Positions 5,499 through 27,636 of a stretch of DNA of 64,000 bases are shown here, one piece after another. The stretch spans positions 158,787-222,786 of the forward strand of contig JAFVDF010000016.1 of assembly GCA_017478625.1 (NCBI GenBank), in the 5' to 3' direction. This DNA is from Alloprevotella sp. (lineage in GTDB: Bacteria; Bacteroidota; Bacteroidia; Bacteroidales; Bacteroidaceae). Below the pieces are notes generated by a model. The model saw only the letters and a program-made list of their open reading frames with translations. It was not told where the DNA came from and made no database searches. Made by a program: the position numbers and the translations under genes. Position 1 is the first letter of the stretch; each line of letters opens with the position of its first letter.

Positions 5499-6450
5499 AT
5501 TCTACCTCTTCCGGCTGGATTTTCACCCTCTTGACGCCTTGCGGCATGGATTTAAGGGTGACTTTTATGCGAGAAGTGGAGTTTTGCAACAGGTCGTCGT
5601 AAGTTATCACTATGATAAAATCGTCGGGAGTTATATCTCTATACTGTTGCATACCCACCTGAAAATTTACAGTTACTTTCGACGGGAATGTGCGCAGTGC
5701 TTTCTCGGCAGGAAAGTTGGCTTGCTGGATAGGAACTTGGAGCGATTTTTCAACAAGCCTGTCTGTTTTGATGAGAACCTTAACAGCTGAGGGCTCATAC
5801 TTGACACCCGGAGACATTTCAAGTTCCGTTTCTACGGTTACAGTGTCCGACACATTATGCATATAGAGAGGCTTGGTCTTGGCTGTGACTAGTGTGTCCA
5901 GCGTACTAGGACGCGCGTAAACGGTAACGCTGTCAGGCTCTGCCAGGAGGGATAATATGAAATACTGATTATCCGAAACGACATTTCCTACCACTTCTAC
6001 AGGGACACGCTTCTTCTCTCCATAGTTATAATAGAAAGAAACCTGCTGTGGTCTTATTGCAACGATGTGCGTATCTCCACTAATCTGTTTGGAAATCTGC
6101 CGGGTCAGTTCGGCCGATGATATAGTGCCCATCCCGTTGGCTTGCGTGGCTTCATTAAAGTCTATAGTTATAGGCTTCAACTTATTAGAAAGCCGATAGG
6201 ATAACAGAGCCCATCCTTTGTCGGTAAGCGATACATTAATCTCCTTAGGTGGTGCGGTTGTGATAACTACCTCCGCGGGCACACCCTCGAGTTGTAAGGG
6301 AATGGCATAATCTTGCTGATAGGTCCCATTGAGTTTTGTTATCAGCCAAAACACAATAGAGAGAAAAAGAAAGAAGCAGAACGTCAGTGTCTGCTTATTC
6401 CAGATAAGAGCAAGGATGGAACGGCTTGTTTTTCTGCGGTTGTTATCCAT
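5452..6450 (-). CDS. YbbR-like domain protein, membrane-anchored
   Basis: The protein has a short cytoplasmic N-terminus, one transmembrane helix (about residues 22-40, FCFFLFLSIVFWLI) and an extracytoplasmic part of YbbR-type beta repeats (for example VPVEVVGNVVSDNQYFI). In Firmicutes the YbbR protein CdaR regulates a diadenylate cyclase. No cyclase gene is adjacent here, so that role is not shown. It lies between yajC and coaE in a conserved Bacteroidales order, and its 3' end overlaps coaE by 23-47 bp depending on the coaE start. Confidence 0.85.
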   Translation of the reverse strand: MDNNRRKTSRSILALIWNKQTLTFCFFLFLSIVFWLITKLNGTYQQDYAIPLQLEGVPAEVVITTAPPKEINVSLTDKGWALLSYRLSNKLKPITIDFNEATQANGMGTISSAELTRQISKQISGDTHIVAIRPQQVSFYYNYGEKKRVPVEVVGNVVSDNQYFILSLLAEPDSVTVYARPSTLDTLVTAKTKPLYMHNVSDTVTVETELEMSPGVKYEPSAVKVLIKTDRLVEKSLQVPIQQANFPAEKALRTFPSKVTVNFQVGMQQYRDITPDDFIIVITYDDLLQNSTSRIKVTLKSMPQGVKRVKIQPEEVEYVIEDIAADGKQQKK

Positions 6451-8403: not shown

Positions 8404-8462
8404 TACTCTCCGTTTTAACGTAAAAAGAAGAACAGTCAATACATTTATATTACAGTTGTATC

Positions 8463-8525
8463 ACACTATCAGTCAAGGGGCTTTGGTTTTCAATCCTGAA
8501 ACCAAAGCCCCTTGACTGATAGTGT
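8463..8525. terminator. Perfect 27-bp-arm inverted repeat between convergent genes
   Basis: Arms 8463-8489 and 8499-8525 are exact reverse complements around a 9-base loop (8490-8498). The element sits between the stops of the DUF3276 gene (8403, +) and the GH20 gene (8538, -), so a two-way terminator is the obvious role. Neither side has the T-run of a standard intrinsic terminator, and the arms are much longer than the other terminators in this window. Confidence 0.7.
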
Positions 8526-10341: not shown

Positions 10342-12942
10342 CTATTCGTTTCGGAATGTCAGTTTGCCATCGGCTACTCCAACGAAAATAGTTTTCTCTT
10401 TGTCTATTGTTCCAGCCAGCAGGTCTTTTGACAGATTGTTGAGTAGCATCCTTTGCAGTGCGCGCTTGATGGGGCGAGCTCCAAACTCGGCGTCAAATCC
10501 TTCTTGCGCTATCAAGTGGATAGCTTCGTCGTCCACGTGGAGCCGTACGTCTTGTGCTTCGAGCCGTTGGATGATAGTCTGTGTCTGCAGCCTTACGATG
10601 TCGGCAATTTGTTCCTCTGTAAGCGGTTCGAACATTATGATATCATCTACGCGGTTTAGGAATTCTGGCCGTATGGTCTGTTTAAGCATATCTAACACGC
10701 CTGTGCGCGCCTCGTCAATAGCCTTTTCGCGCTGGGCCATAGTGGCACCCTCCAATGCGCCTAGTTTTTCTTGTATGAAGCGACTTCCCAGATTCGACGT
10801 CATTATGATAATCGTATTTTTGAAGTTCACCACGCGTCCTTTGTTATCTGTAAGTCGTCCGTCGTCTAGGACTTGGAGCAATATGTTAAAGACGTCGGGG
10901 TGTGCCTTCTCTATTTCGTCGAATAAGACCACGCTGTATGGTTTCCGCCTTACGGCCTCGGTCAGTTGCCCGCCCTCTTCGTAGCCTACATAGCCCGGAG
11001 GTGCACCGACAAGCCTTGAAACACTGAATTTCTCCTGATATTCAGACATATCAATACGGGTCATCAGATTCTCGTCATTAAAGAGATATTCTGCAAGTGC
11101 CTTGGCTAGTTCGGTTTTGCCCACACCAGTGGTTCCCAGAAATATGAACGATCCAATCGGTCGCTTGGGATCTTGCAATCCGGCCCTGCTACGGCGCACT
11201 GCATCACTGACGGCGGCAATGGCCTCGCCTTGTCCTACGACGCGCTTGTGTAGTTCGTCTTCGAGATGTAGGAGCTTTTCGCGCTCACTCTGTAGCATTC
11301 GGTTTACGGGAATACCCGTCCAGCGCGAAACCACATCCGCTATGTCATCGGGCGTAACCTCTTCGCGCACAAGTGCATCGTTTCCCTGCTGGTCTCGGAG
11401 TTTTTTCTCCACACTGTTTATCTCGTCTTCCAATGCGCGTAGTTTTCCGTAGCGTATCTCAGCCACCTTGCCGTAGTCTCCCTCTCTCTCAGCGCGTTCG
11501 GCCTCGAAGCGGAGTTGTTCCATAAGTTTACGGTTCTCTTGAATCTTGGCAATCAGCTGTCGCTCACCTTCCCATTTTGCACGGAAAGCACTTTCGCGCT
11601 CCTGCAATTCGGCAATTTCTTTGCCCAATTGGGCTAGTTTAGGCTCGTCGTGTTCTCTCTTGATGGCCTCGCGTTCTATTTCCAGCTGGCGTAACCGGCG
11701 AGAAATCTCGTCTAATTCTTCGGGCTGAGAGTCGTGTTCCATGCGTAATTTTGCCGCGGCTTCATCCATAAGGTCTATAGCCTTGTCTGGCAGAAAACGG
11801 TCGGATATGTAGCGGTGGGAGAGTTGTGCGGCGGCTATAAGGGCATCGTCTTCGATACGTACCTTATGGTGATTCTCATAACGCTCCTTCAGACCACGTA
11901 GAATACTTATTGTGTCTTCTACACTCGGTTCGTCCACCATTACAGTCTGGAAGCGGCGCTCAAGTGCCTTGTCCTTTTCAAAATACTTTTGGTATTCTTC
12001 CAGCGTAGTAGCGCCGATGGTTCTTATCTCCCCGCGTGAGAGAGCCGGCTTAAGTATGTTGGCTGCATCCATAGCGCCTTCACTTTTACCCGCACCCACC
12101 AGCGTATGAATCTCATCAATGAAGAGGATTATATTACCCTCCGATTGCGTTACCTCATTCACTACGCTTTTAAGTCGTTCCTCAAACTCGCCCTTATATT
12201 TTGCACCGGCCAGCAGTGCCCCCATATCGAGCGAGAAGAGTTGCTTGTCGCGCAGATTGTCTGGGACGTCGCCACGTACTATACGCTGGGCTATTCCTTC
12301 CACTATGGCCGTCTTACCGGTGCCCGGCTCACCAATCAGGATGGGGTTGTTTTTCGTGCGACGCGATAGGATTTGAAGTACACGGCGTATCTCGTCGTCG
12401 CGACCAATCACTGGGTCGAGGTGTCCGCTCTGCGCTTCATCAACCAGGTTGCGCGCATATTTTTGCAGAGCCTGCCATGTGTCTTCGCTAGACGGACTGT
12501 CTGTGGTCTTTCCACCTCGGAGCTGGGTAATGGCCTGACTTACGATTTCACGGCTTAGACCTGCGTCACGAAGAATGTGGCCTGCAGTACCATTGGAACT
12601 GGTAAGTGCCAGGAGCAACGTTTCAATACCGACGAAAGTGTCACCTTGTTTGCGGGCCAGTTCTTGCGCCTGAAGCAACACTTGGTTGGCCTCTTTGTCT
12701 AGATAAGGTTCACTGCCGGTCACACGGGGTAGCCGGCCGATTTCATTATGTACAGCCTGTACCAAGGGTTGCAAGGCTACACCAGCCTTATTGAACAGAA
12801 ATTTTATCACATCTTCGCCTACGGCAAGTACGCCGGCGAGCAGATGCAAGTCTGTGATAGCTTGTTGTCCGCCTGTAGAAGCTTTGTCTATGGCGGTCTG
12901 AATGCTCTCTTGAGCCTTGATGGTAAAATTATCTAACTTCAT
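10342..12942 (-). CDS. clpB: ATP-dependent chaperone ClpB
   Basis: ClpB is the Hsp100 disaggregase that works with DnaK to rescue aggregated proteins. The 866-aa protein is full length: Clp_N repeats (about 1-145), AAA1 with Walker A GEPGTGKT (204-211) and the [12 protein letters not shown] Walker B, a coiled-coil middle domain (about 400-530, rich in Glu/Arg/Lys), AAA2 with [12 protein letters not shown] near residue 608, and the D2-small domain. It is transcribed alone. The 301 bp upstream contain palindrome arrays that could be heat- or stress-related operators, but no known heat-shock operator is recognised. Confidence 0.97.
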
Positions 12943-13243: not shown

Positions 13244-14605
13244 TTAAATCTTTGGTACGCTGGCCAATGTCTTGGCAATGTCGGCGTCGGAGATGTCGTA
13301 ATTCTGCAAGTCGCCATTCAAGAATTGGTCGTAGGCAGTCATGTCGATGAGTCCGTGGCCTGAAAGGTTGAAGAGGATGGTCTTCTGCTCGCCACTCTCC
13401 TTGCAACGCAGCGCTTCGCGTATGGTAGCGGCGATGGCGTGGCTACTTTCGGGAGCAGGAATGATGCCTTCGGTCTGTGCAAAGAGCAAACCGGCCTGGA
13501 AACTTTCCAGCTGCGGAATATCAACGGCCTTAATATACTGGTCCTTTAAGAGCTGGCTGACAATGGCTCCCGCACCGTGGTAGCGAAGCCCGCCGGCGTG
13601 GATGTTGGCCGGTCTGAAATCGTGGCCGAGCGTGAACATGGGAATCAGTGGCGTGTAACCGCTTGCGTCGCCGAAGTCATATTCAAATTTGCCTCTTGTA
13701 AGTTTTGGGCAACTACTGGGCTCTGCAGTTATGAACGTGGTCTGCTTTCCGTCCAGTAAGTTATGGCGCAGGAACGGGAAGGCCAGACCGCCGAAGTTAC
13801 TTCCGCCACCGAAGCAGGCTATGACAATGTCAGGATACTCACCTGCCTGCTCCATCTGCTTCTCTGCTTCCAGTCCGATAACGGTCTGGTGGAGCGATAC
13901 ATGGTTCAGTACGGAGCCGAGCGTGTATTTACAGTTGGGTGTGCTTATGGCAAGTTCTATTGCTTCGCTGATGGCTGTTCCCAGCGAGCCGGGATTGGTC
14001 GGGTCGGCCGTGATAAAATCTTTTCCTGCGCGTGTGGACATTGAAGGAGAGCCTTCTACCGTTGCTCCAAATGTGCGCATCATTATGCTCCGATAGGGTT
14101 TCTGTTGCAGACTAATCTTTACTTGATAGACCGCAGCTTCCAAACCGAAAGTGCGAGCCGCATAACTCAGCGCGGCACCCCACTGGCCTGCGCCCGTCTC
14201 GGTAGTAACATTCGTGATGCCCTGTTCTTTGAGGTAATAGCATTGTGCGAGGGCGGAATTGATCTTGTGGGAGCCAAGCGGATTGACGCTCTCGTTCTTG
14301 AAATAAATATGAGCGGGTGTATCCAGTGCTTTCTCCAGGTCGTAGGCACGGACGAGTGGCGTGGCGCGATAGGACTTGTATTTTTCCAGAACGGGTTCCG
14401 GAATGTCTATAAAGGAGTGTGTTTGGTCAAGTTCCTGCCGTGCACATTCTTCTGCGAAGAGCGGAAAGAAATCTTCAACTTTCACAGGCTCGTGAGTGGC
14501 CGGGTTGAGTGGCGGAAGGGGCTTATTGACCATGTCTGCCTGGATGTTGTACCACTGTGTAGGGATTTCGCTCTCTTGGAGCAAGAAACGCTTTTGTTTA
14601 GTCAT
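13244..14605 (-). CDS. Tryptophan synthase beta chain-like protein (TrpB2)
   Basis: This PLP enzyme would condense indole with serine (or a related acceptor) to form tryptophan. The 453-aa length and N-terminal extension (IPTQWYNIQADM near residues 14-25) place it in the TrpB2 group, not the TrpAB-complex TrpB1. The PLP lysine is K114 in NPLGSHKINSA, and the phosphate-binding loop is CFGGGSNFGG near 235. No trpA or other trp gene is near, which fits TrpB2 as a stand-alone indole-salvage enzyme. Upstream lie a promoter, a Trp-rich leader peptide and an attenuator, so expression should rise when charged tRNA-Trp is scarce. Confidence 0.92.
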   Translation of the reverse strand: MTKQKRFLLQESEIPTQWYNIQADMVNKPLPPLNPATHEPVKVEDFFPLFAEECARQELDQTHSFIDIPEPVLEKYKSYRATPLVRAYDLEKALDTPAHIYFKNESVNPLGSHKINSALAQCYYLKEQGITNVTTETGAGQWGAALSYAARTFGLEAAVYQVKISLQQKPYRSIMMRTFGATVEGSPSMSTRAGKDFITADPTNPGSLGTAISEAIELAISTPNCKYTLGSVLNHVSLHQTVIGLEAEKQMEQAGEYPDIVIACFGGGSNFGGLAFPFLRHNLLDGKQTTFITAEPSSCPKLTRGKFEYDFGDASGYTPLIPMFTLGHDFRPANIHAGGLRYHGAGAIVSQLLKDQYIKAVDIPQLESFQAGLLFAQTEGIIPAPESSHAIAATIREALRCKESGEQKTILFNLSGHGLIDMTAYDQFLNGDLQNYDISDADIAKTLASVPKI

Positions 14606-21800: not shown

Positions 21801-22032
21801 CTATGTCAAGGCAGAGTTCACGCTGGATATCATCAACTTTGCAAATTGCCTCAACAAGAAGTGGGGAGCCCAGTACGGTAGCGTATATAACTACTCGCCA
21901 CTCTACTTGAGCAGCATCACTACCGTAAACGGTCAGAAAGTACCCGTGTTCCAATACAACGAGACCACGCTGACCAAGAGCGATATCTACAGCCGCTGGC
22001 ACATGCAGCTCGGTTTCCGTCTGACGTTCTAA
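18865..22032 (+). CDS. TonB-dependent outer-membrane receptor, Oar-like
   Basis: The 1055-aa protein has a signal peptide (about residues 1-22, ending LQAQ), an N-terminal carboxypeptidase-regulatory-like domain (about 28-110, VTNAKGRYTIQGLRPGG), a plug domain (about 120-240, with VAPYDVRHGGFTGGGINAVTKSG) and a C-terminal beta-barrel ending in aromatic Phe (MQLGFRLTF). The plug and the absence of a SusC N-terminal signature put it in the Oar-like group. No SusD partner follows, unlike the locus at 50 kb. The ligand is unknown; homologues move peptides or other substrates. It is monocistronic, with a strong terminator just downstream. Confidence 0.9.
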   Translation: MFTFKRVVFAMVASLLAIGLQAQVTTSAIGGQVTDNEDLPAVGVAVKATHLTSGTVYRAVTNAKGRYTIQGLRPGGPYTIEFNYLGYAPARLDDIYLELGNEYPLDTKLALQETNLGEAVVVAMRRASAGSGENFSLERIQTSPTINRDVYDIVTTSPMVMSSKIGGISIVGSNNRYNSFQIDGVVANDVFGLSAGGTNGAQTGANPVSLDAIEEVQVVVAPYDVRHGGFTGGGINAVTKSGTNQLHGSAYAYFNNQNMYGRYSVLQNYAKNPLTDQFDRTFGGTLGGAFVKDRLFYFFSVENKKKSYPSSLWPGFDDKYITTEVAQQIADKYYEMTGIRETFGRHDVDSHSLGILGRLDWNIDERNKLTLRYQFNNSYKDAYSLGSTSYTFERSAYRYNNLTHSIVLELNSHISDKVSNELRVSGSWIRDHRDVPYHGPNAQITNVNGADGTRRITVNIGTDYSSGANILDQNTYSFEDNLSVYLGNHTLTFGTHNEIFKIRNLFIQAAYGAWYFNSLDNFLNDNPYQFKYNYTDPTYTKGDVLFAPNMGAGQFGLYAQDKWNVTRDFNVTYGLRIDIPTLFNRPMKNQEFNAYAAEQGFDVRVGENPKAHVMFSPRLGFNWYLNKKHSVLLRGGTGIFTGRVPFVWLSNTFNNTGVEKKGTTISRNVPGMSDYQNALQEVIDAGSNSLKPDIVTVSRDFKYPQVFRSNLALEATLPLGIKFTLDGIYSKTLNNVFFENLAITSNENIYAVPGVAASATPYYNIESSAYYSIVNLKNTSKGYTYAVSAMLEKDFDFGLNVAASYTFGHAKSVNDGTSSVAYSNWKYNYSHDTNGKGELGYSKFDVPHRIMARLTYNSKRYLGGLFSTNLGITYNATSGQRYCLTMYENDDFNGDGYRGNNLLYIPTKMELGAMQFEDTYVNGVLKMDADENRAAFERWIESDSYAKNHRGQYAERNSNLTDWEHEVNLHFGQAIHLKNYVKAEFTLDIINFANCLNKKWGAQYGSVYNYSPLYLSSITTVNGQKVPVFQYNETTLTKSDIYSRWHMQLGFRLTF

Positions 22033-22067
22033 TCCGTTCGTCCGTCGGACTTCCGATACCGTTTCAT

Positions 22068-22101
22068 AGCCCTGCGCTCCTACGAGAGCGTGGGGCTTTT
22101 T
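22068..22101 (+). terminator. Intrinsic terminator of the Oar-like gene
   Basis: A 12-bp stem AGCCCTGCGCTC (22068-22079) with GAGCGTGGGGCT (22086-22097), including two G-T pairs, is followed by a T-run. It lies 36 bases after the stop codon. Confidence 0.88.
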
Positions 22102-22164
22102 CATGCGTTAAAGTTGAGGTGTCAGCGAATAGTCCGTTTCTCAGTTTGGTGCTTCGTCTGCGGA

Positions 22165-22266
22165 AATTGCATTATGGCGTCAATTTATTGCATTATGCAA
22201 TCGCGTGATTGTATAATGCAATTTTCAAATCCGATTATGCAAAAACTGTACGGCATAATGCAATAT
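22165..22266. repeat. Cluster of five ATTATG-motif copies
   Basis: Within about 100 bp are five copies in mixed orientation: 22165-22178 (AAATTGCATTATGG), 22190-22204 (GCATTATGCAAT), 22211-22227 (ATAATGCAATTTTC), 22232-22245 (GATTATGCAAAA) and 22252-22266 (GGCATAATGCAAT). The cluster lies between the Oar-like gene's terminator and the left direct repeat of the AT-rich island. The remainder of 22102-22692 has no supported gene. Confidence 0.65.
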
Positions 22267-22290
22267 ATCGGTAGTATAATTGTACCGAAA

Positions 22291-22326
22291 TTTCCTGCTT
22301 ATTCCGTGGCGGGAGAGATGAGGGCT
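22291..22326. repeat. Left copy of a 36-bp direct repeat bounding the AT-rich island
   Basis: 33 of 36 positions match 24848-24883, which contains the last codons of the MmeI-like gene and the bases after its stop. Read on the minus strand this copy would encode ALISPATE and a stop, against ALISPTTE and a stop in the intact gene; all three differences are transitions. It looks like a duplicated gene end, either an attachment-site scar or the relic of a second copy. Confidence 0.7.
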
Positions 22327-22463
22327 ACCTACGCGTTGGATTAAAGAATGATGAAAATGCATGTACATGCTTATTTCAAGTATGTATTTATATTCTTCTT
22401 TGTACGATTTGTATGTAGAATTCACTATTTTCGTTGAATAGATTGAGTTTTCAAGATTTCATT

Positions 22464-22508
22464 CTAATTCTTGTTCCAATTCTTGTTCTAATTCTTGTTT
22501 TAATTCTA
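22464..22508. repeat. 12-bp tandem repeat, about 3.7 copies
   Basis: Units close to CTAATTCTTGTT start at 22464, 22476, 22488 and 22500 (last copy partial). They lie in the AT-rich leader of the island, about 185-230 bp before its first gene. A perfect 12-bp palindrome GCATGTACATGC is at 22359-22370. Confidence 0.75.
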
Positions 22509-22664
22509 TTACCAAAAGTTTTTAAGACTGTGATGTATATATAGGTTAAAACTGCTTTAAAGTTAAAAGTTATTATTATTATTGTAAACATGTTTAATTA
22601 TAAATGAGTGAAGAATAGGTGAAAAATTTTCAATATAAAGTTGGAGGCTATTAGCAGAATTGTG

Positions 22665-22672
22665 TAATTTTG
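22665..22672 (+). promoter_or_regulatory. Candidate -7 box of the first island gene
   Basis: A perfect TAATTTTG lies 21 bases before the ATG at 22693. A TTGG at 22641-22644 is a possible weak -33 element, 20 bases upstream. Confidence 0.5.
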
Positions 22673-22692
22673 TAGGAAAATAATAGAAGACG

Positions 22693-23088
22693 ATGTTGAC
22701 AATATTAAAACCCCAAGATTTTAGTTGTAAACTGAAGGCAACCGTACAAAGTTCCGGAAAATTAAACTTTACTGATGCGACAGCTCAGGAGCTTGGCTTG
22801 GAAAAAGTACGCAGTGTGAAATTTGCACTGGATGAACAGAATAATTTATATATTGCACTTTTGAGTGAAAAGGTTCCTGATGCTTTTTTGTTGTGTCGGT
22901 CTGGTCGGTACTATTATGTACAGGCCAGGTTGATTTTTAATTCTTTGGGGATAGACTATGTAAACAATACTGTTATATGTGATCTGCGACGATACATAGA
23001 GGCAGATGAAGAAATGGTGGGGAAAGCATATAAATTGATTATACGCGTTAAGCCACAAAAAGGAAAGGAGGATGTCGGTGAGGTTTAA
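22693..23088 (+). CDS. Hypothetical protein, first gene of the AT-rich island
   Basis: I do not recognise this 131-aa protein. It has no signal peptide or membrane segment. It reads as a compact alternating alpha/beta protein (GKLNFTDATAQELGL, then VKFALDEQNNLYIALL, then YYYVQARLIFNSLGI), with a basic tail (IRVKPQKGKEDVG). Composition is clearly more AT-rich than the flanking genes. It has its own -7 box and a 202-bp gap to the next gene, so it may be transcribed separately from the three-gene cluster that follows. Confidence 0.7.
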   Translation: MLTILKPQDFSCKLKATVQSSGKLNFTDATAQELGLEKVRSVKFALDEQNNLYIALLSEKVPDAFLLCRSGRYYYVQARLIFNSLGIDYVNNTVICDLRRYIEADEEMVGKAYKLIIRVKPQKGKEDVGEV

Positions 23089-23168
23089 ATAGCAAAAAAA
23101 GTGCCCGAACAAGTGCAAGTTGTACGGGCAGGGAGTTTCCCCGAATGTGGATAGGGGGATGCCAAAGA

Positions 23169-23197
23169 TTTGATTGTTGAGTTTGGCTTTAGTTTTG
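23169..23197 (+). promoter_or_regulatory. Candidate promoter of the DUF4417 operon
   Basis: TTTG (23169-23172), a 17-base spacer, and TAGTTTTG (23190-23197), a perfect TAnnTTTG box. It lies 94 bases before the DUF4417 ATG. A hairpin with TGCCCG/CGGGCA ends (23102-23130) sits further upstream; its T-run is on the minus strand, so it is not a good terminator for the preceding gene. Confidence 0.5.
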
Positions 23198-23290
23198 CAA
23201 AAATAGATTATACTTCCTTTTTTTGCAAGCTATATCCCATATAATATCAAGATTCCACTAGTTTTTTTTCATAATTTTAAACTGATTTTT

Positions 23291-23998
23291 ATGGGACAAT
23301 TTTTGTTTTCTAAAGATGAAATGCAAACATTAAAGGTTTTACCTGAAGTATCAGATACTAGAAAATATAAAGGTATGCTTATACCTAAAGAATTAATTAT
23401 ACCCCATTTTACGGATGGGCCATTTGACATACCTTTACTGTCACCTTATGATGGGAATCTGCCTGACAAATTAGTTCATTTTACACGGTTATCAACACAG
23501 AAAGGTAACTTATGCAATAGTGGTATTTCTCTTTTTATGGACGATGAACTTCAGAATTATTTGTGGAATAATCCTTCTTATTATTTGTCTCGTTTGAAAT
23601 ATGCACAGTGCGTAATGGGATTAGATTTTTCCTTATATGTAGAATATGATTTTTCTGCAAATCTCTGGAATATATATAGAAATCGCCTTCTTTCTTATTA
23701 TTATCAAGTAAATGGCGTTGGCTTTATTCCAACTGCATGTTTTGGCAATTCTAATACATTTTCATACTGTTTTGCAGGATTGCCCGAAAATAGCCCAATA
23801 GCCATAAACCATTCTGTTATTGGGAATAATCCGTATATGAAACAGCTAATTCGTCTTGGAGTGGAGGAATTAGTTAAACAGAAACACCCCAATCCCTTAA
23901 TTATATATGGTTTTCCATTGGATTTCGAGGTTCCTGTGCAAGTCTTATATTACGAAAGCAATATTCAACGATTACGTCAACTTAAAAAAGTTTCTTAA
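23291..23998 (+). CDS. DUF4417 family protein
   Basis: The 235-aa protein matches the DUF4417 pattern known from phages and mobile elements: a short Asp-rich lead-in (LVHFTRLSTQK), then MDDELQNYLWNNPSYYLSRLKYAQCVMGLDFSLYVEYD, IYRNRLLSYYYQVNGVGFIPTACFGN, FSYCFAGLPENSPIAI and a C-terminal PLIIYGFPLDFEVPV. The function of the family is unknown. No signal peptide is present. The next gene starts one base after its stop, so it is the first gene of a tight three-gene operon. The AT-rich codon use sets it apart from its chromosomal neighbours. Confidence 0.75.
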   Translation: MGQFLFSKDEMQTLKVLPEVSDTRKYKGMLIPKELIIPHFTDGPFDIPLLSPYDGNLPDKLVHFTRLSTQKGNLCNSGISLFMDDELQNYLWNNPSYYLSRLKYAQCVMGLDFSLYVEYDFSANLWNIYRNRLLSYYYQVNGVGFIPTACFGNSNTFSYCFAGLPENSPIAINHSVIGNNPYMKQLIRLGVEELVKQKHPNPLIIYGFPLDFEVPVQVLYYESNIQRLRQLKKVS

Positions 23999-23999
23999 T

Positions 24000-24386
24000 A
24001 TGAAAAAGAAAGTTATTACCCCCTTACCCGAAAAGGATTTTCGCTTGTTTGAAGATATGTCTGATAAATATGTCTCAGAGCCTGAGCGGAAATTCTTTGA
24101 GACTCTTAGACAGCGGGAGGAAGATTATGCCATTAATTGGGATTGGCTCATAAATGAGCATAAAAATCCAGAGCACATCTCGCTTATTCGCTATTACAAT
24201 AGTGAGTATAAGGTAGGTTGCCTGGATACGAATGGAAAATATTATCGGATTGCTTATGTGGATTCCTTAGCAGAAGCATTGGAAGTTGTTGTTCCCGTAG
24301 CTGGCAATCGTTTGGGCTCTTTAGTTGATTGGCTACGTAATTCACACTATACTTATGTTTCATATAATGGAGTGGAGGAGTTATAA
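24000..24386 (+). CDS. Hypothetical protein, middle gene of the island operon
   Basis: I do not recognise this 128-aa acidic cytoplasmic protein. I start at ATG 24000 (MKKKVITPLPEKDF), one base after the DUF4417 stop; the frame is open back to 23907 but that part overlaps DUF4417. The N-terminal half is charged and helical (MSDKYVSEPERKFFETLRQ), the C-terminal half beta-rich (YYNSEYKVGCLDTNGKYYRI). Its TAA overlaps the next ATG (TAATG), so the two proteins are translationally coupled and probably act together. An immunity or antitoxin role for the next protein is conceivable but unsupported by homology. Confidence 0.7.
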   Translation: MKKKVITPLPEKDFRLFEDMSDKYVSEPERKFFETLRQREEDYAINWDWLINEHKNPEHISLIRYYNSEYKVGCLDTNGKYYRIAYVDSLAEALEVVVPVAGNRLGSLVDWLRNSHYTYVSYNGVEEL

Positions 24387-24808
24387 TGGGGGGACCTAAG
24401 CAAGCAATAAGTTCTGGCGGTTTCACGGAATTACGCTATCATCAAGTGGGAGAAACTATTTCTGCTGGTGGGTTGTCTGGCAAGATAATTGCCTATAATG
24501 AAACATTTGATTATCACGAGGGGCTTCCTAGTATGTCTAATACGTCAAATATTTACTTTAAATTAGCTGATGGCGGACAATATGTAGAACAGATGCGCGT
24601 CTATAAAAATAGGAAAGTTGTATTTGACTTTGATTGGGGACATGGTCATGAAGGATTCAAAAGTGGTGTCGTTCATGTGCATCAATGGGAAGAAGACGCC
24701 AACGGAATACCTCGACGAACAGGTATAAAAAGGTATATGAATAATTACGAAATGAAAAAGTATGGTTCTATTATACGTAAAGCAAATCCAAAAGTGAAGT
24801 TTAGATAG
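24386..24808 (+). CDS. Small protein with a possible toxin-like His-rich domain
   Basis: The 140-aa protein begins MGGPKQAISSGGF and has no signal peptide. Its core, VVFDFDWGHGHEGF followed by VVHVHQWEED (about residues 75-105), and the upstream GLPSMSNTSNIYFKL, resemble small domains with D-x-D, H-G and H-x-H-x-W motifs that occur at the ends of polymorphic toxins and phage minor head proteins. That resemblance is from memory and no activity can be assigned. It overlaps the preceding stop codon by one base and ends 47 bp from the convergent MmeI-like gene. Confidence 0.6.
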   Translation: MGGPKQAISSGGFTELRYHQVGETISAGGLSGKIIAYNETFDYHEGLPSMSNTSNIYFKLADGGQYVEQMRVYKNRKVVFDFDWGHGHEGFKSGVVHVHQWEEDANGIPRRTGIKRYMNNYEMKKYGSIIRKANPKVKFR

Positions 24809-24812
24809 TTTA

Positions 24813-24838
24813 GATTAATATCAATAGCCATATTAATC
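24813..24838. terminator. Hairpin between the island operon and the convergent MmeI-like gene
   Basis: GATTAATAT (24813-24821) pairs perfectly with ATATTAATC (24830-24838). On the plus strand it is followed by an AT-rich tract ending in a T-run (24847-24851). Confidence 0.6.
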
Positions 24839-24847
24839 ATAATATAT

Positions 24848-24883
24848 TTTTCTGCTTATTCTGTGGTGGGAGAGATGAGGGCT
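24848..24883. repeat. Right copy of the 36-bp direct repeat
   Basis: This copy spans the stop codon and last codons of the MmeI-like gene and matches 22291-22326 at 33 of 36 positions. The two copies are 2557 bp apart, and the AT-rich four-gene segment lies between them. Confidence 0.7.
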
Positions 24884-27624
24884 TGGTAGCGGCGGAAGAG
24901 GGCTGTAACAATGTCGGACTCGGAGATGCTGCTGGGGAAGCCGTAGGCGGCAAGGACGGCGCGGTCGTTCTGCTGATGGGCGCGTCGGAGTTCGGGCGGC
25001 ATGGTTCGCGGGTCGTAGAGGTCGGCCAGCGTGGAGTCGGGGTATAAGGCGCGCGCATCGAGGATGGCTTGGGCGGTGGTTTCTATCCGTGCGGTCTGTT
25101 CGCTGGACACCTCGGGCCAAGGGAAGTTATTATACACTACATCCTTGGAATAGCGGTAATCGCTTTTTAAGCGGCCGCAGACGGCGCGCATCCACGCCAT
25201 GTGTACCGACGACATAAGCACGCCGAAATGGTAGAGCGTCGCATCGGGGATGATGAGCGTAGCGTTGGTTGAGACGAAGTCCTTACCAAGAAATCCCATA
25301 GGGATGTATGGGCGATTCTCTGAAGAAAGAGAAGGAATAAGTAAGAATGTTTCTGGATTGTTGGTTTCTCTAAACAGATGGGGCATATCTGCCAGCCTGC
25401 GAGTGGCTGCATCAGAACTGGCCAAGCGCATAGCGTGCACACGCTCCATACGTTGTAAGACAAGAGGCATAGCGCGTAACTCTGCGGGAGTGGCATCTTT
25501 AAGCCAAAGACAATAGCGTGGCTTGTTGTTAATATATTCTTTAGCCCCAACGAGTTGCTTTATGAATTTTTTTGCCTTGGGCTCTTCTCGTAGAAAGTCT
25601 TCTAATTCTGCCGCATCTATGATAAGATTTCCTCCGTCTGTGGGCTGATTCCCTTTCCTTATGGGAGGAATGTCTTCCAAAGGTCTGTTCCTGCTCCTAA
25701 TAAAGATATCGGGAGCATCCATAAGGTAGGCATTGATGTTCTTAACGGAAATTTTTTGTCCGTTGTCATATATGAATTTGTCAGACGGCGTAATTTGCGC
25801 ATAGCTAAATCCAATTATAACACAATGCACGTGGGCCGTGTTGTTTGCCTCGCTGTCCCAGCGGAAAGTACGGTGCGCAAAATCTATATGTAGTCCGTCT
25901 GCAAAAAGAGGTGCCCACAAGTTGGGTACTTGTTCGCCTTGACAAATGCTATTAGTAGATACAAATGCTGCGCGAATAGGGCTTCCTTTCATAAAGTCTG
26001 AGGCCTTTTTAAACCAGCCTGTGACATAGTCCATTTCACCTATGTTCCGCCACCTTGGCCCGAATAAATTGACCAAATCCCTATGCTGTTCGGGGCTCAT
26101 GTTATTTGCGCCGATAAAAGGAGGGTTACCAATTATATACAACTGCCCATTGTGTTCTGGGATGAGGCTCTGCCAGTCCATTTGGAGGGCGTTGCCTTCG
26201 TGGATGTTCGTGTAGGTTTTTAGTGGGAGGAAGTCGAGGTCTTGCTGGACTATGCGCTCGGTCTCTGCCATCATCTGATTTTCAGATATCCATAGGGCGG
26301 TGGTGGCTACGGCTACGGCGAAGTCGTTTATCTCTATGCCGTGGAACTGCTGGATGCTGACGCGAATAGGGTTCAGGCCCGCGCCCCACACTTTCTGCTC
26401 GCGGAAACGCTCGCGGATGGCTATGTTCTCCAGACGGCGCAGGGAAAGATACGTCTCGGTCAGGAAGTTTCCGCTGCCGCAAGCCGGATCGAAGAAAATG
26501 AGTGAGGCGAGTTTTTCCTGATAAGCGGTGAGCAGGCTGACGCGACGCTTCTCTATGCGCTCAGCCAGTATGGCGTCGAGTTCTGCGCGCAGGCTGTTGA
26601 GAAAGAGCGGGTCTATAACTTTGTGTATGTTCTCGATGCTGGTGTAGTGCATACCACCCTTGCGTCGCGTATCGGGGTTGAGCGTCGATTCGAATACCGC
26701 GCCGAATATCGTGGGCGATATTTCGCTCCAGTCGAAACCTTTGCTGGCATGTTCTACGAGTAATTCGCGCAGGCTGAACGTGAACTGCGGCACTTCGATA
26801 GACTCGCTGAAGAGTCCGCCGTTGGTATAGGGGAAGGCCTTAAGACTTTCTTTCAGATAGGGGGTTCGCTCGGCTTCGGGCGTATTGAGCACGTCGAACA
26901 ACTCCAAGAGGGCCGCGCGCAGGTCCTCAGAATTGCAGTGGGCGAGGTAGTCGTGAAACTGGTCGTGGCTAAAGATGCCCGCGTCCTCGGCGTAAAGGCA
27001 GAATACGAGCCTGACGCAAAGAATGTTGAGCCAGCGCTGGGCCTGCGGGCTGGGGTCGTTGTACTGCCGGAGCAGTTCGTCGTAGATTTTGCCCACGATT
27101 TCGCCAGCCTGCATACTGACTTGCATCTCGCGTTGCAGATGGGCGGCACCACTCTCTACGAGAAAGCGCAGACGGTAATATTCCTTGCCCAAATCCTTGA
27201 GGAAAATCTGCTGAGGCTCCGCGTGGGGCTGCTCCATGTCATAGACGAGAAATTCGGCAAAATTACACGTCACGATATAGCGAGGGTGCTGCGAGAGCGG
27301 TAGTCCGAGCACGTAGCGACGCGCCTGCTCAAACGGCGTCAGTTCTATACCTCCGCTCTGCCTGATAGGCTCGCGCAGGTTGCGGCCAAGGCTTTTTTGC
27401 TCGATAAGTACCTTGGTGGAGGGGATATGTGCGTCGATGAAGTTGGTCGTATCGACCTTTACTTGTTCTTCATAACGTATGAAGGTAGATGGATTGGGAA
27501 TGCCGAAAACTTCTGCGAGCAGTTCGGTCCAAAACACCTGCGAGTCGCCCTTCTCATAGCCGCGTCCCTGCCAACGTCGGGCAAACGCGGCTGCTGCCTT
27601 AGCCTGTTGTTTGTTGCTCTTCAT
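24856..27624 (-). CDS. MmeI-like type IIL restriction-modification enzyme
   Basis: A single-chain enzyme that cuts and N6-adenine-methylates DNA. The 922-aa length is nearly that of MmeI (919). The N-terminal PD-(D/E)xK nuclease is visible as D64 with E75-Q-K77 (FIDAHIPSTKVLIEQK). A helical spacer covers about 160-340. The SAM-binding motif DPACGSGNF is at 379-387 and the catalytic NPPF at 500-503, the gamma-type amino-methyltransferase order. The target-recognition domain and C-terminal region follow (about 620-922). All key residues seem intact, so it is probably active. One polypeptide recognises, cuts and modifies, so no partner gene is needed. It starts 12 bp after the antiporter gene ends. 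Confidence 0.88.
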   Translation of the reverse strand: MKSNKQQAKAAAAFARRWQGRGYEKGDSQVFWTELLAEVFGIPNPSTFIRYEEQVKVDTTNFIDAHIPSTKVLIEQKSLGRNLREPIRQSGGIELTPFEQARRYVLGLPLSQHPRYIVTCNFAEFLVYDMEQPHAEPQQIFLKDLGKEYYRLRFLVESGAAHLQREMQVSMQAGEIVGKIYDELLRQYNDPSPQAQRWLNILCVRLVFCLYAEDAGIFSHDQFHDYLAHCNSEDLRAALLELFDVLNTPEAERTPYLKESLKAFPYTNGGLFSESIEVPQFTFSLRELLVEHASKGFDWSEISPTIFGAVFESTLNPDTRRKGGMHYTSIENIHKVIDPLFLNSLRAELDAILAERIEKRRVSLLTAYQEKLASLIFFDPACGSGNFLTETYLSLRRLENIAIRERFREQKVWGAGLNPIRVSIQQFHGIEINDFAVAVATTALWISENQMMAETERIVQQDLDFLPLKTYTNIHEGNALQMDWQSLIPEHNGQLYIIGNPPFIGANNMSPEQHRDLVNLFGPRWRNIGEMDYVTGWFKKASDFMKGSPIRAAFVSTNSICQGEQVPNLWAPLFADGLHIDFAHRTFRWDSEANNTAHVHCVIIGFSYAQITPSDKFIYDNGQKISVKNINAYLMDAPDIFIRSRNRPLEDIPPIRKGNQPTDGGNLIIDAAELEDFLREEPKAKKFIKQLVGAKEYINNKPRYCLWLKDATPAELRAMPLVLQRMERVHAMRLASSDAATRRLADMPHLFRETNNPETFLLIPSLSSENRPYIPMGFLGKDFVSTNATLIIPDATLYHFGVLMSSVHMAWMRAVCGRLKSDYRYSKDVVYNNFPWPEVSSEQTARIETTAQAILDARALYPDSTLADLYDPRTMPPELRRAHQQNDRAVLAAYGFPSSISESDIVTALFRRYQALISPTTE

Positions 27625-27636
27625 GTGTCAGTCAGT

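What the first reader, a model, noticed from the sequence alone, without database searches (positions are those of the whole stretch)
22291..24883. AT-rich four-gene island bounded by a duplicated end of the restriction-modification gene
A 36-bp direct repeat (33/36 identical, all differences transitions) flanks a 2.5-kb segment. One copy is the stop-codon end of the intact MmeI-like gene; the other stands alone on the far side of four AT-rich genes. This is what insertion at a gene's 3' end with a regenerated terminus looks like, yet no integrase or transposase lies inside. It may be a cargo module moved by an external recombinase, or the relic of a tandem copy of the enzyme gene. Accessory genes lodged beside a restriction-modification gene also recall a small defence island.
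Basis: partly seen in the sequence, partly recalled or inferred. Interest (0 to 1): 0.7.

Follow-up and report, generated by a model that had tools for sequence, protein, structure and literature searches.

The report
Mobile toxin-like cassette beside restriction gene
A small AT-rich set of genes, which looks like a toxin and its protector together with a phage-type gene and a probable small RNA, seems to have inserted at the very end of a DNA-restriction gene and duplicated that end; similar sets sit scattered in related bacteria, often beside other restriction genes.

Summary
A 33/36 direct repeat (three C/T differences) flanks a 2,521-bp, 34% GC segment with four genes beside an intact MmeI-type gene. 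No longer decayed methylase was found behind the left copy. The segment is a recurrent cassette: DUF4417 gene, acidic ORF3, basic ORF4, sometimes preceded by ORF1; 13 further loci carry ORF4. ORF4's predicted fold matches three phage proteins, one annotated minor capsid protein, so a toxin-immunity-like pair is likely but untested. Nine of thirteen leaders printed hold a probable minus-strand small RNA. Two further loci, both in one related genome, duplicate a neighbour's 3' end (24 and 486 bp, perfect). Cassettes lie tail-to-tail with the next gene in 8 of 10 readable loci and by restriction-modification genes in 5 of 10. The best reading is insertion with long, variable target duplication, a pattern already described for R-M genes, here carrying a cassette that my searches found undescribed. 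No clean empty site was found, no recombinase is identified, no function was tested.

The parts
22291..22326 (.). left repeat copy: duplicated 3' end of the MmeI-type gene (last 8 codons with one residue changed, stop, bases beyond)
22327..24847 (.). inserted AT-rich segment (2,521 bp, 34.3% GC)
   Evidence: insertion inferred
22665..22672 (+). promoter-like TAnnTTTG box upstream of ORF1 (Bacteroidales-type consensus recalled)
22693..23088 (+). ORF1, 131 aa, no family above cut-off; homologues precede the cassette in L034, L038 and L041
23094..23198 (-). probable small RNA: hairpins ending in an intrinsic terminator (stem about 23103-23129, then a T run)
   Evidence: inferred, no expression data
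23198..23205 (-). promoter-like TAnnTTTG box of the small RNA
23190..23197 (+). promoter-like TAnnTTTG box of the DUF4417 operon, back to back with the minus-strand box
23291..23998 (+). DUF4417 protein, 235 aa (PF14386 E 1.5e-35; phrog_940 'nuclease')
24000..24386 (+). ORF3, 128 aa, acidic (pI 5.2); immunity or antitoxin candidate
24386..24808 (+). ORF4, 140 aa, basic (pI 9.5); toxin-like domain, overlaps the ORF3 stop by one base
24848..24883 (.). right repeat copy, inside and just after the MmeI-type gene's 3' end
24856..27624 (-). intact MmeI-type IIG restriction-modification gene, 922 aa

Best explanation
The segment is a mobile accessory cassette of probable phage ancestry: an acidic immunity or antitoxin-like protein (ORF3) and a basic toxin-like protein (ORF4) behind a DUF4417 gene, with a divergent small RNA and, here, ORF1. 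It inserted just behind the stop codon of the MmeI-type gene, convergent with it, and the event duplicated 36 bp of the gene's 3' end, so the gene stayed whole. The likeliest route (inferred) is integration of circular or captured DNA across short homology at a gene end, or another long-target-duplication event, not a dedicated integrase or DDE transposase. Once in place (inferred) the pair acts as a selfish or defensive toxin-immunity unit; settling at gene ends and beside R-M systems costs the host little. Shown: the repeat, the recurrence, the gene order, the convergent placement. Inferred: insertion itself, toxicity, immunity, small-RNA expression, the recombination route.
For: ORF4 is present in the 14 loci compared (window, L030-L042); DUF4417 in 12 of 14, ORF3 in 12 of 14, ORF1 in 4 of 14; order DUF4417-ORF3-ORF4 in the 10 loci with all three. 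L032 and L033 lack a DUF4417 match, L040 and L042 an ORF3 match. pI is 8.9-10.0 in 14 of 14 ORF4 and 4.4-5.2 in 12 of 12 ORF3. ORF4's model (mean pLDDT 82) matches three viral predictions at probability 1.00, one a 406-aa minor capsid protein. In G741 an ORF3 relative and the first part of an ORF4 run, with a change of frame, into a gene with a papain-fold toxin domain, and a second ORF3 relative lies beyond. L031 has a perfect 24-bp repeat at an oxidoreductase 3' end; L038 a perfect 486-bp repeat at a gene 3' end. The next gene downstream is convergent in 8 of 10 readable loci against 26 of 90 background pairs, P 0.0012.
Against: Convincing flanking repeats were seen in only 3 of 14 loci, two of them in one genome, G110; five of the 14 had under 1.1 kb of flank on one side. 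L031 also has a second, longer direct match (52 bp, 85%) outside the first that I cannot explain. No clean empty site: G147 lacks both cassettes, but at the L031 site it holds about 5 kb of other DNA between the same boundaries and a gutted oxidoreductase gene, and at the L038 site its flank differs beyond the single copy. ORF4 has no significant PDB match, Pfam support is weak (DUF6978 in 2 of 14 members, best E 5e-4; Ntox24 in 1 of 14, E 0.03), and which part of the viral models is matched was not shown. ORF3 has no convincing family. No toxicity, expression or mobility data exist.
Confidence: 0.55

Rival explanations
1. Site-specific element moved by an integrase supplied in trans: the repeats are attL and attR at a gene 3' end, and the cassette is cargo of a satellite or ICE.
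For: Gene 3' ends with a restored terminus are classic attachment sites (recalled); 24 and 36 bp are plausible lengths.
Against: The three repeats are no more alike than shuffles and one is 486 bp; no integrase family came up for the cassette's genes.
Confidence: 0.2
2. Functional partner of restriction-modification: a guard that releases the toxin when the neighbouring R-M enzyme is blocked or lost, with the small RNA as regulator.
For: R-M genes of three unlike kinds lie downstream and convergent in 5 of 10 readable loci: MmeI (window), GmrSD/HNH with EcoRI-type methylase (L032, L038, and L030 after three other genes), T5orf172/ResIII with Eco57I-type methylase (L039).
Against: In the other five (L031, L034, L035, L036, L037) the next gene has no R-M family by Pfam; further genes there were mostly not scanned. 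Of 30 EcoRI-methylase loci fetched, with 1.5-kb flanks, only the one in G110 shows ORF4. A shared preference for defence islands explains the link more simply.
Confidence: 0.13
3. Relic of a second MmeI-type gene whose body was replaced by foreign DNA.
For: The left copy is a gene end with its stop codon. Four of seven relatives' C-terminal parts give weak hits (E 0.025-0.94) in the segment or its leader, but on the plus strand.
Against: No minus-strand match of the window enzyme better than E 1.3 in 22000-24847; the two G110 loci repeat the anatomy at unrelated genes.
Confidence: 0.05

Closest known systems
Insertion with long target duplication of R-M genes (Nobusato 2000 and Furuta 2010, known here only through passages of PMC3031569 and PMC1643837)
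   Same: insert flanked by a long, variable direct repeat of target DNA, linked to R-M genes
   Different: the inserted unit is a toxin-like cassette, without R-M genes in the window and L031 and with them in L038, and it lands at gene 3' ends
MuF polymorphic toxins of temperate phages (PMC5576092, passages seen)
   Same: ORF4's fold matches a phage minor capsid protein (whether of the MuF kind is not known); a small gene for a possible immunity protein lies next to it
   Different: ORF4 stands alone with no delivery domain found, and the acidic gene precedes it instead of following
Two-gene toxin-antitoxin operons (general features recalled)
   Same: short overlapping genes, acidic partner first, basic second
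   Different: a DUF4417 gene and a divergent RNA are attached; no DNA-binding family came up for ORF3
DUF4417 phage proteins (PMC12704722, passages seen)
   Same: ORF2 carries the Pfam domain
   Different: that paper describes fusions to ParB-CTPase folds; here the domain stands alone in a cassette

Membership tests
Insertion with long target duplication | direct repeat of target DNA flanks the insert | tested here: met
   window 36 bp, L031 24 bp, L038 486 bp; of the other 11 of 14 loci none has a convincing one (L040 a 16-bp match at E 0.047, L041 a 13-bp match)
Insertion with long target duplication | relative with a single copy and no insert | tested here: inconclusive
   G147 has one copy of most of the L038 repeat (413 bp, 97%) and no island, but its flank differs; none for the window
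Integrase-borne genomic island | integrase in the element | tested here: not met
   no such family for the window's four genes
Integrase-borne genomic island | common attachment core | tested here: not met
   the three repeats, both orientations, score like shuffles: 54 to 410 of 500 shuffles reach the score
MuF polymorphic toxin | MuF delivery domain fused to the toxin | tested here: not met
   ORF4 is 140 aa with no Pfam match
MuF polymorphic toxin | toxin-type C-terminal domain | tested here: inconclusive
   Foldseek probability 1.00 to three viral models, matched part of them not shown
Toxin-antitoxin or toxin-immunity pair | one gene toxic, the partner neutralises it | not testable with these tools
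   only charge and gene order known
DUF4417 | Pfam PF14386 above its cut-off | tested here: met
   122.8 bits against 28.9
MmeI-type IIG R-M | N, helicase-spacer, methylase, TRD and C domains | tested here: met
   five Pfam domains above cut-off; activity not tested
Defence system in PADLOC-DB 2.0.0 | match to a PADLOC model | tested here: not met
   none of the four cassette proteins matches up to E 1

The most novel reading that the evidence does not exclude
An RNA-regulated toxin-immunity cassette that travels with and guards restriction-modification systems: a divergent small RNA, which in seven of nine cases carries the motif [AG]CCAAA[CG], controls a DUF4417-ORF3-ORF4 operon, and loss or inhibition of the neighbouring R-M enzyme frees ORF4 to kill or stall the infected cell.
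Probability: 0.1. Interest if true: 0.85.

Novelty: new variant of a known kind. Interest (0 to 1): 0.52.

Why it matters
It gives a searchable cassette (DUF4417, acidic ORF3, basic ORF4, divergent RNA) for a toxin-like family that I did not find described, mostly in Bacteroidales genomes from metagenomes. It also extends 'insertion with long target duplication', known to me from R-M genes, to such cassettes and to gene 3' ends. If the R-M link is functional, it would be a new way in which restriction is backed up by cell suicide.

Tried and rejected
Tandem-methylase relic: tblastn of the window enzyme against 22000-24847 gave only weak hits on both strands (E 1.3-8.8), one of them the repeat's own 8 codons. 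The last 200 aa of seven relatives were also tried; four (L004, L005, L019, L020) gave plus-strand hits at E 0.025-0.94, most of them around 22270-22440. I took this as chance because the strand is wrong for a relic.

Other copies of the repeat: no match with up to 8 mismatches of 31 in the 103 records then held, beyond the two places and their re-fetched copies.

Known RNA family: none at gathering threshold in seven loci; four sub-threshold hits, E 0.17-3.5, in window 22000-25000, none at the RNA.

Phage or plasmid relatives of ORF4 by tblastn: none for the window protein in phages or plasmids, none for two relatives in phages, four hits at E 1 or more for a third. DUF4417 of the window matched 475 phage records and 5 plasmids. 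In five DUF4417 regions fetched (4 phage, 1 plasmid) no ORF1, ORF3 or ORF4 relative was found at E 0.05. PHROG hits of ORF4 members are weak (best E 0.0013, 2 of 14). Two more viral scans, with L042's ORF4 and with ORF1, only returned contigs already known.

Wider searches: ORF4 profile in 1 of 393 order genomes (the own genome) and 6 of 399 family genomes.

DUF4417 structure: first job failed, two further submissions were not accepted; left undone.

Background for convergence rests on crude ORF calling (ORFs of 120 aa or more); the figures 8 of 10 and 7 of 10 were read by me and the window's ORF list and typed into the script. L033, L040, L041 and L042 were left out because the contig ended or no clear gene followed. 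The partial ORF4 copies in G094 (L168; next gene convergent) and G741 (L167; next gene in the same direction) were also left out.
Full report
OBSERVATION. The two copies, 22291-22326 and 24848-24883, agree at 33 of 36 positions and the three differences are C against T. No other direct pair with at least 33/36 identity was found in the window by a seeded scan, 100 shuffles gave no match, and the 15-bp core is found only at these two places in the held genome, 59% complete. The right copy is the end of an intact 922-aa MmeI-type gene. The segment between the copies has 34.3% GC, the window 46.3%.

CONTENT. ORF1 (131 aa) has no family above cut-off. ORF2 is a DUF4417 protein (E 1.5e-35). ORF3 (128 aa) and ORF4 (140 aa) have no Pfam family; the ORF3 stop overlaps the ORF4 start by one base. 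None of the four matches a PADLOC model up to E 1. Exactly three TAnnTTTG boxes (Bacteroidales promoter consensus, recalled) occur on either strand of 22327-24860: 28 bp before ORF1, about 100 bp before DUF4417, and one on the minus strand back to back with the second.

RECURRENCE. Searches with ORF4 gave matches in five of 251 family genomes including the own one, 11 loci in the genome collection and 2 viral contigs. Some are the same place seen twice: L024 and L031, L028 and L038, L025 and L033, L026 and L037. I compared 14 loci, the window plus L030-L042: DUF4417 in 12, ORF3 in 12, ORF1 in 4 (window, L034, L038, L041). L032 and L033 have no DUF4417 match by profile; L040 and L042 have no ORF3 match, but another short gene follows ORF4. 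Partial ORF4 copies in G094 and G741 were not among the 14. The set is rare: 6 of 399 family genomes and 1 of 393 order genomes. So the genes are a travelling set, not a chance assembly.

THE SAME ANATOMY ELSEWHERE. In L031 a perfect 24-bp repeat (6406-6429, 8460-8483) flanks the cassette; its right copy is the 3' end with stop codon of a convergent GFO/IDH oxidoreductase gene. In L038 a perfect 486-bp repeat (5515-6000, 11563-12048) flanks the cassette plus GmrSD/HNH and EcoRI-type methylase genes; its right copy is the last 348 bp of a convergent ORF (11701-12411) plus 138 bp beyond. That ORF looks like a corrinoid protein (recalled, not tested). In all three cases the whole gene lies on the ORF4 side and the truncated copy on the leader side. 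L031 and L038 are both from G110, so these are three cases in two genomes. The three repeats are no more alike than shuffles. Of the other 11 loci none shows a convincing flanking repeat, only a 16-bp match in L040 at E 0.047 and a 13-bp match in L041 one point above the best of 60 shuffles. L033, L035, L037, L041 and L042 had about 0.2-1.1 kb on one side, L036 1.7 kb. L031 also has a 52-bp, 85% direct match further out, and L038 a 20-bp one, both unexplained.

EMPTY SITES. G147 is a relative of G110, 97% identical over 751 bp of the L031 left flank. At the L031 site its homology stops at the outer edges of the repeat on both sides, but about 5 kb of other DNA lies between, and its oxidoreductase gene has lost residues 18-306. 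At the L038 site it has one copy (413 bp, 97%) and no island, but its sequence past the terminator side differs. These fit insertion but are not clean empty sites. For the window, the two flank genes (TonB-type receptor and Kef-type transporter, names recalled from sequence) lie on different contigs in all seven genus genomes with a receptor match of 50% identity or more, so no test was possible.

PLACEMENT. Ten loci have a readable downstream neighbour: window, L030, L031, L032, L034, L035, L036, L037, L038, L039. It is convergent in eight (not L034, L037), with at most 70 bp between the stops in seven (not L036, 292 bp). Background pairs in the same contigs: 26 of 90 convergent, 16 of 90 convergent within 70 bp; binomial P 0.0012 and 0.0004 (the ten were chosen by me after seeing them). 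R-M genes follow in five: MmeI (window), GmrSD/HNH with EcoRI methylase (L032, L038, and L030 after three other genes), T5orf172/ResIII with Eco57I-type methylase (L039). L035 is followed by a 207-aa protein that looks like a methylase to me but has no Pfam match. The EcoRI methylases of the three loci are 41-56% identical (in that output the labels print last, and I take the first three rows as the methylases from the order of the script). EcoRI methylase occurs in 120 of 399 family genomes, so three neighbours by chance are unlikely, but one composite unit could be counted three times. Of 30 EcoRI-methylase loci fetched, one, G110's own, showed ORF4 in the 1.5-kb flanks held.

NATURE OF ORF3 AND ORF4. 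ORF4 is basic in 14 of 14 and ORF3 acidic in 12 of 12. ORF4's model (pLDDT 82, pTM 0.79) has no PDB match of note but three BFVD matches at probability 1.00: a 148-aa protein named glycosyltransferase, a 367-aa phage protein and a 406-aa minor capsid protein. Phage MuF proteins can carry toxin domains (PMC5576092, passages); whether these models are of that kind was not tested. In G741 an ORF3 relative and the first 79 profile positions of ORF4 run, with a change of frame, into a gene with papain-fold toxin domain PF15644, and a second ORF3 relative lies further on. This fits toxin and immunity, without proof.

SMALL RNA. Thirteen leaders were printed and folded; L040 was not looked at. Ten, those before a DUF4417 gene in loci other than L042, were searched for a minus-strand TAnnTTTG box: seven have it in place (window, L031, L034, L037, L038, L039, L041). 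L035 and L036 have a box with one mismatch and were added by hand; L030 has none. All nine show hairpins and a final stem followed by a T-rich run; folding z-scores against mononucleotide shuffles are -2.4 to -5.9. Seven of nine carry [AG]CCAAA[CG]; L031 has GCCAAAAC and L041 GCCAAG. Random 120-base windows of the same loci show the motif in 79 of 1800, but the motif was defined after looking. The alignment has few invariant columns, and no covariation test was made. Rfam has no match at threshold in the seven loci searched.

LITERATURE. DUF4417 occurs in 3 papers of the library; one reports ParB-CTPase fusions in phages (passages). 'Long target duplication' occurs in 19 papers; passages state that R-M systems can insert with long and variable target duplications (PMC3031569; PMC1643837). 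The primary papers, Nobusato 2000 and Furuta 2010, were not read (the latter not held). A prophage-encoded Bacteroides toxin with two immunity proteins is known (PMC11699363, abstract and outline). I found no description of this cassette, on the searches only.

VERDICT. A real insertion-like structure carrying a recurrent toxin-immunity-like cassette; the mode of insertion is of a known kind, the cassette and its probable small RNA are new to the searches made here.

Noticed in passing
22164-22268: Cluster of palindromic GCATTATGC-type repeats between the TonB-type gene and the left repeat copy
   Followed up: no
22462-22507: Three 12-bp tandem units (TTCTAATTCTTG-like) in the cassette leader
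   Followed up: no
27625-27636: Only 12 bp lie between the stop of a Kef-type transporter ORF (name recalled) and the start of the MmeI-type gene, so the enzyme gene itself may be a late arrival
   Followed up: partly
L167:4400-8250: G741 locus with an ORF3 relative and a partial ORF4, a papain-fold toxin gene (PF15644), a second ORF3 relative and a SocA/Panacea gene: looks like a toxin-immunity array
   Followed up: partly
L122:751-5794: G147 carries unrelated DNA of about 5 kb between the boundaries where G110 has the cassette: perhaps an insertion hotspot at a gene 3' end
   Followed up: partly
L031:5223-5273 and 14127-14178: A 52-bp direct match (85%) lies outside the 24-bp repeat of L031, unexplained
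   Followed up: no
G000:C15 278676-279734 and 327410-328363: The window's genome holds two EcoRI-type methylase genes on another contig
   Followed up: no
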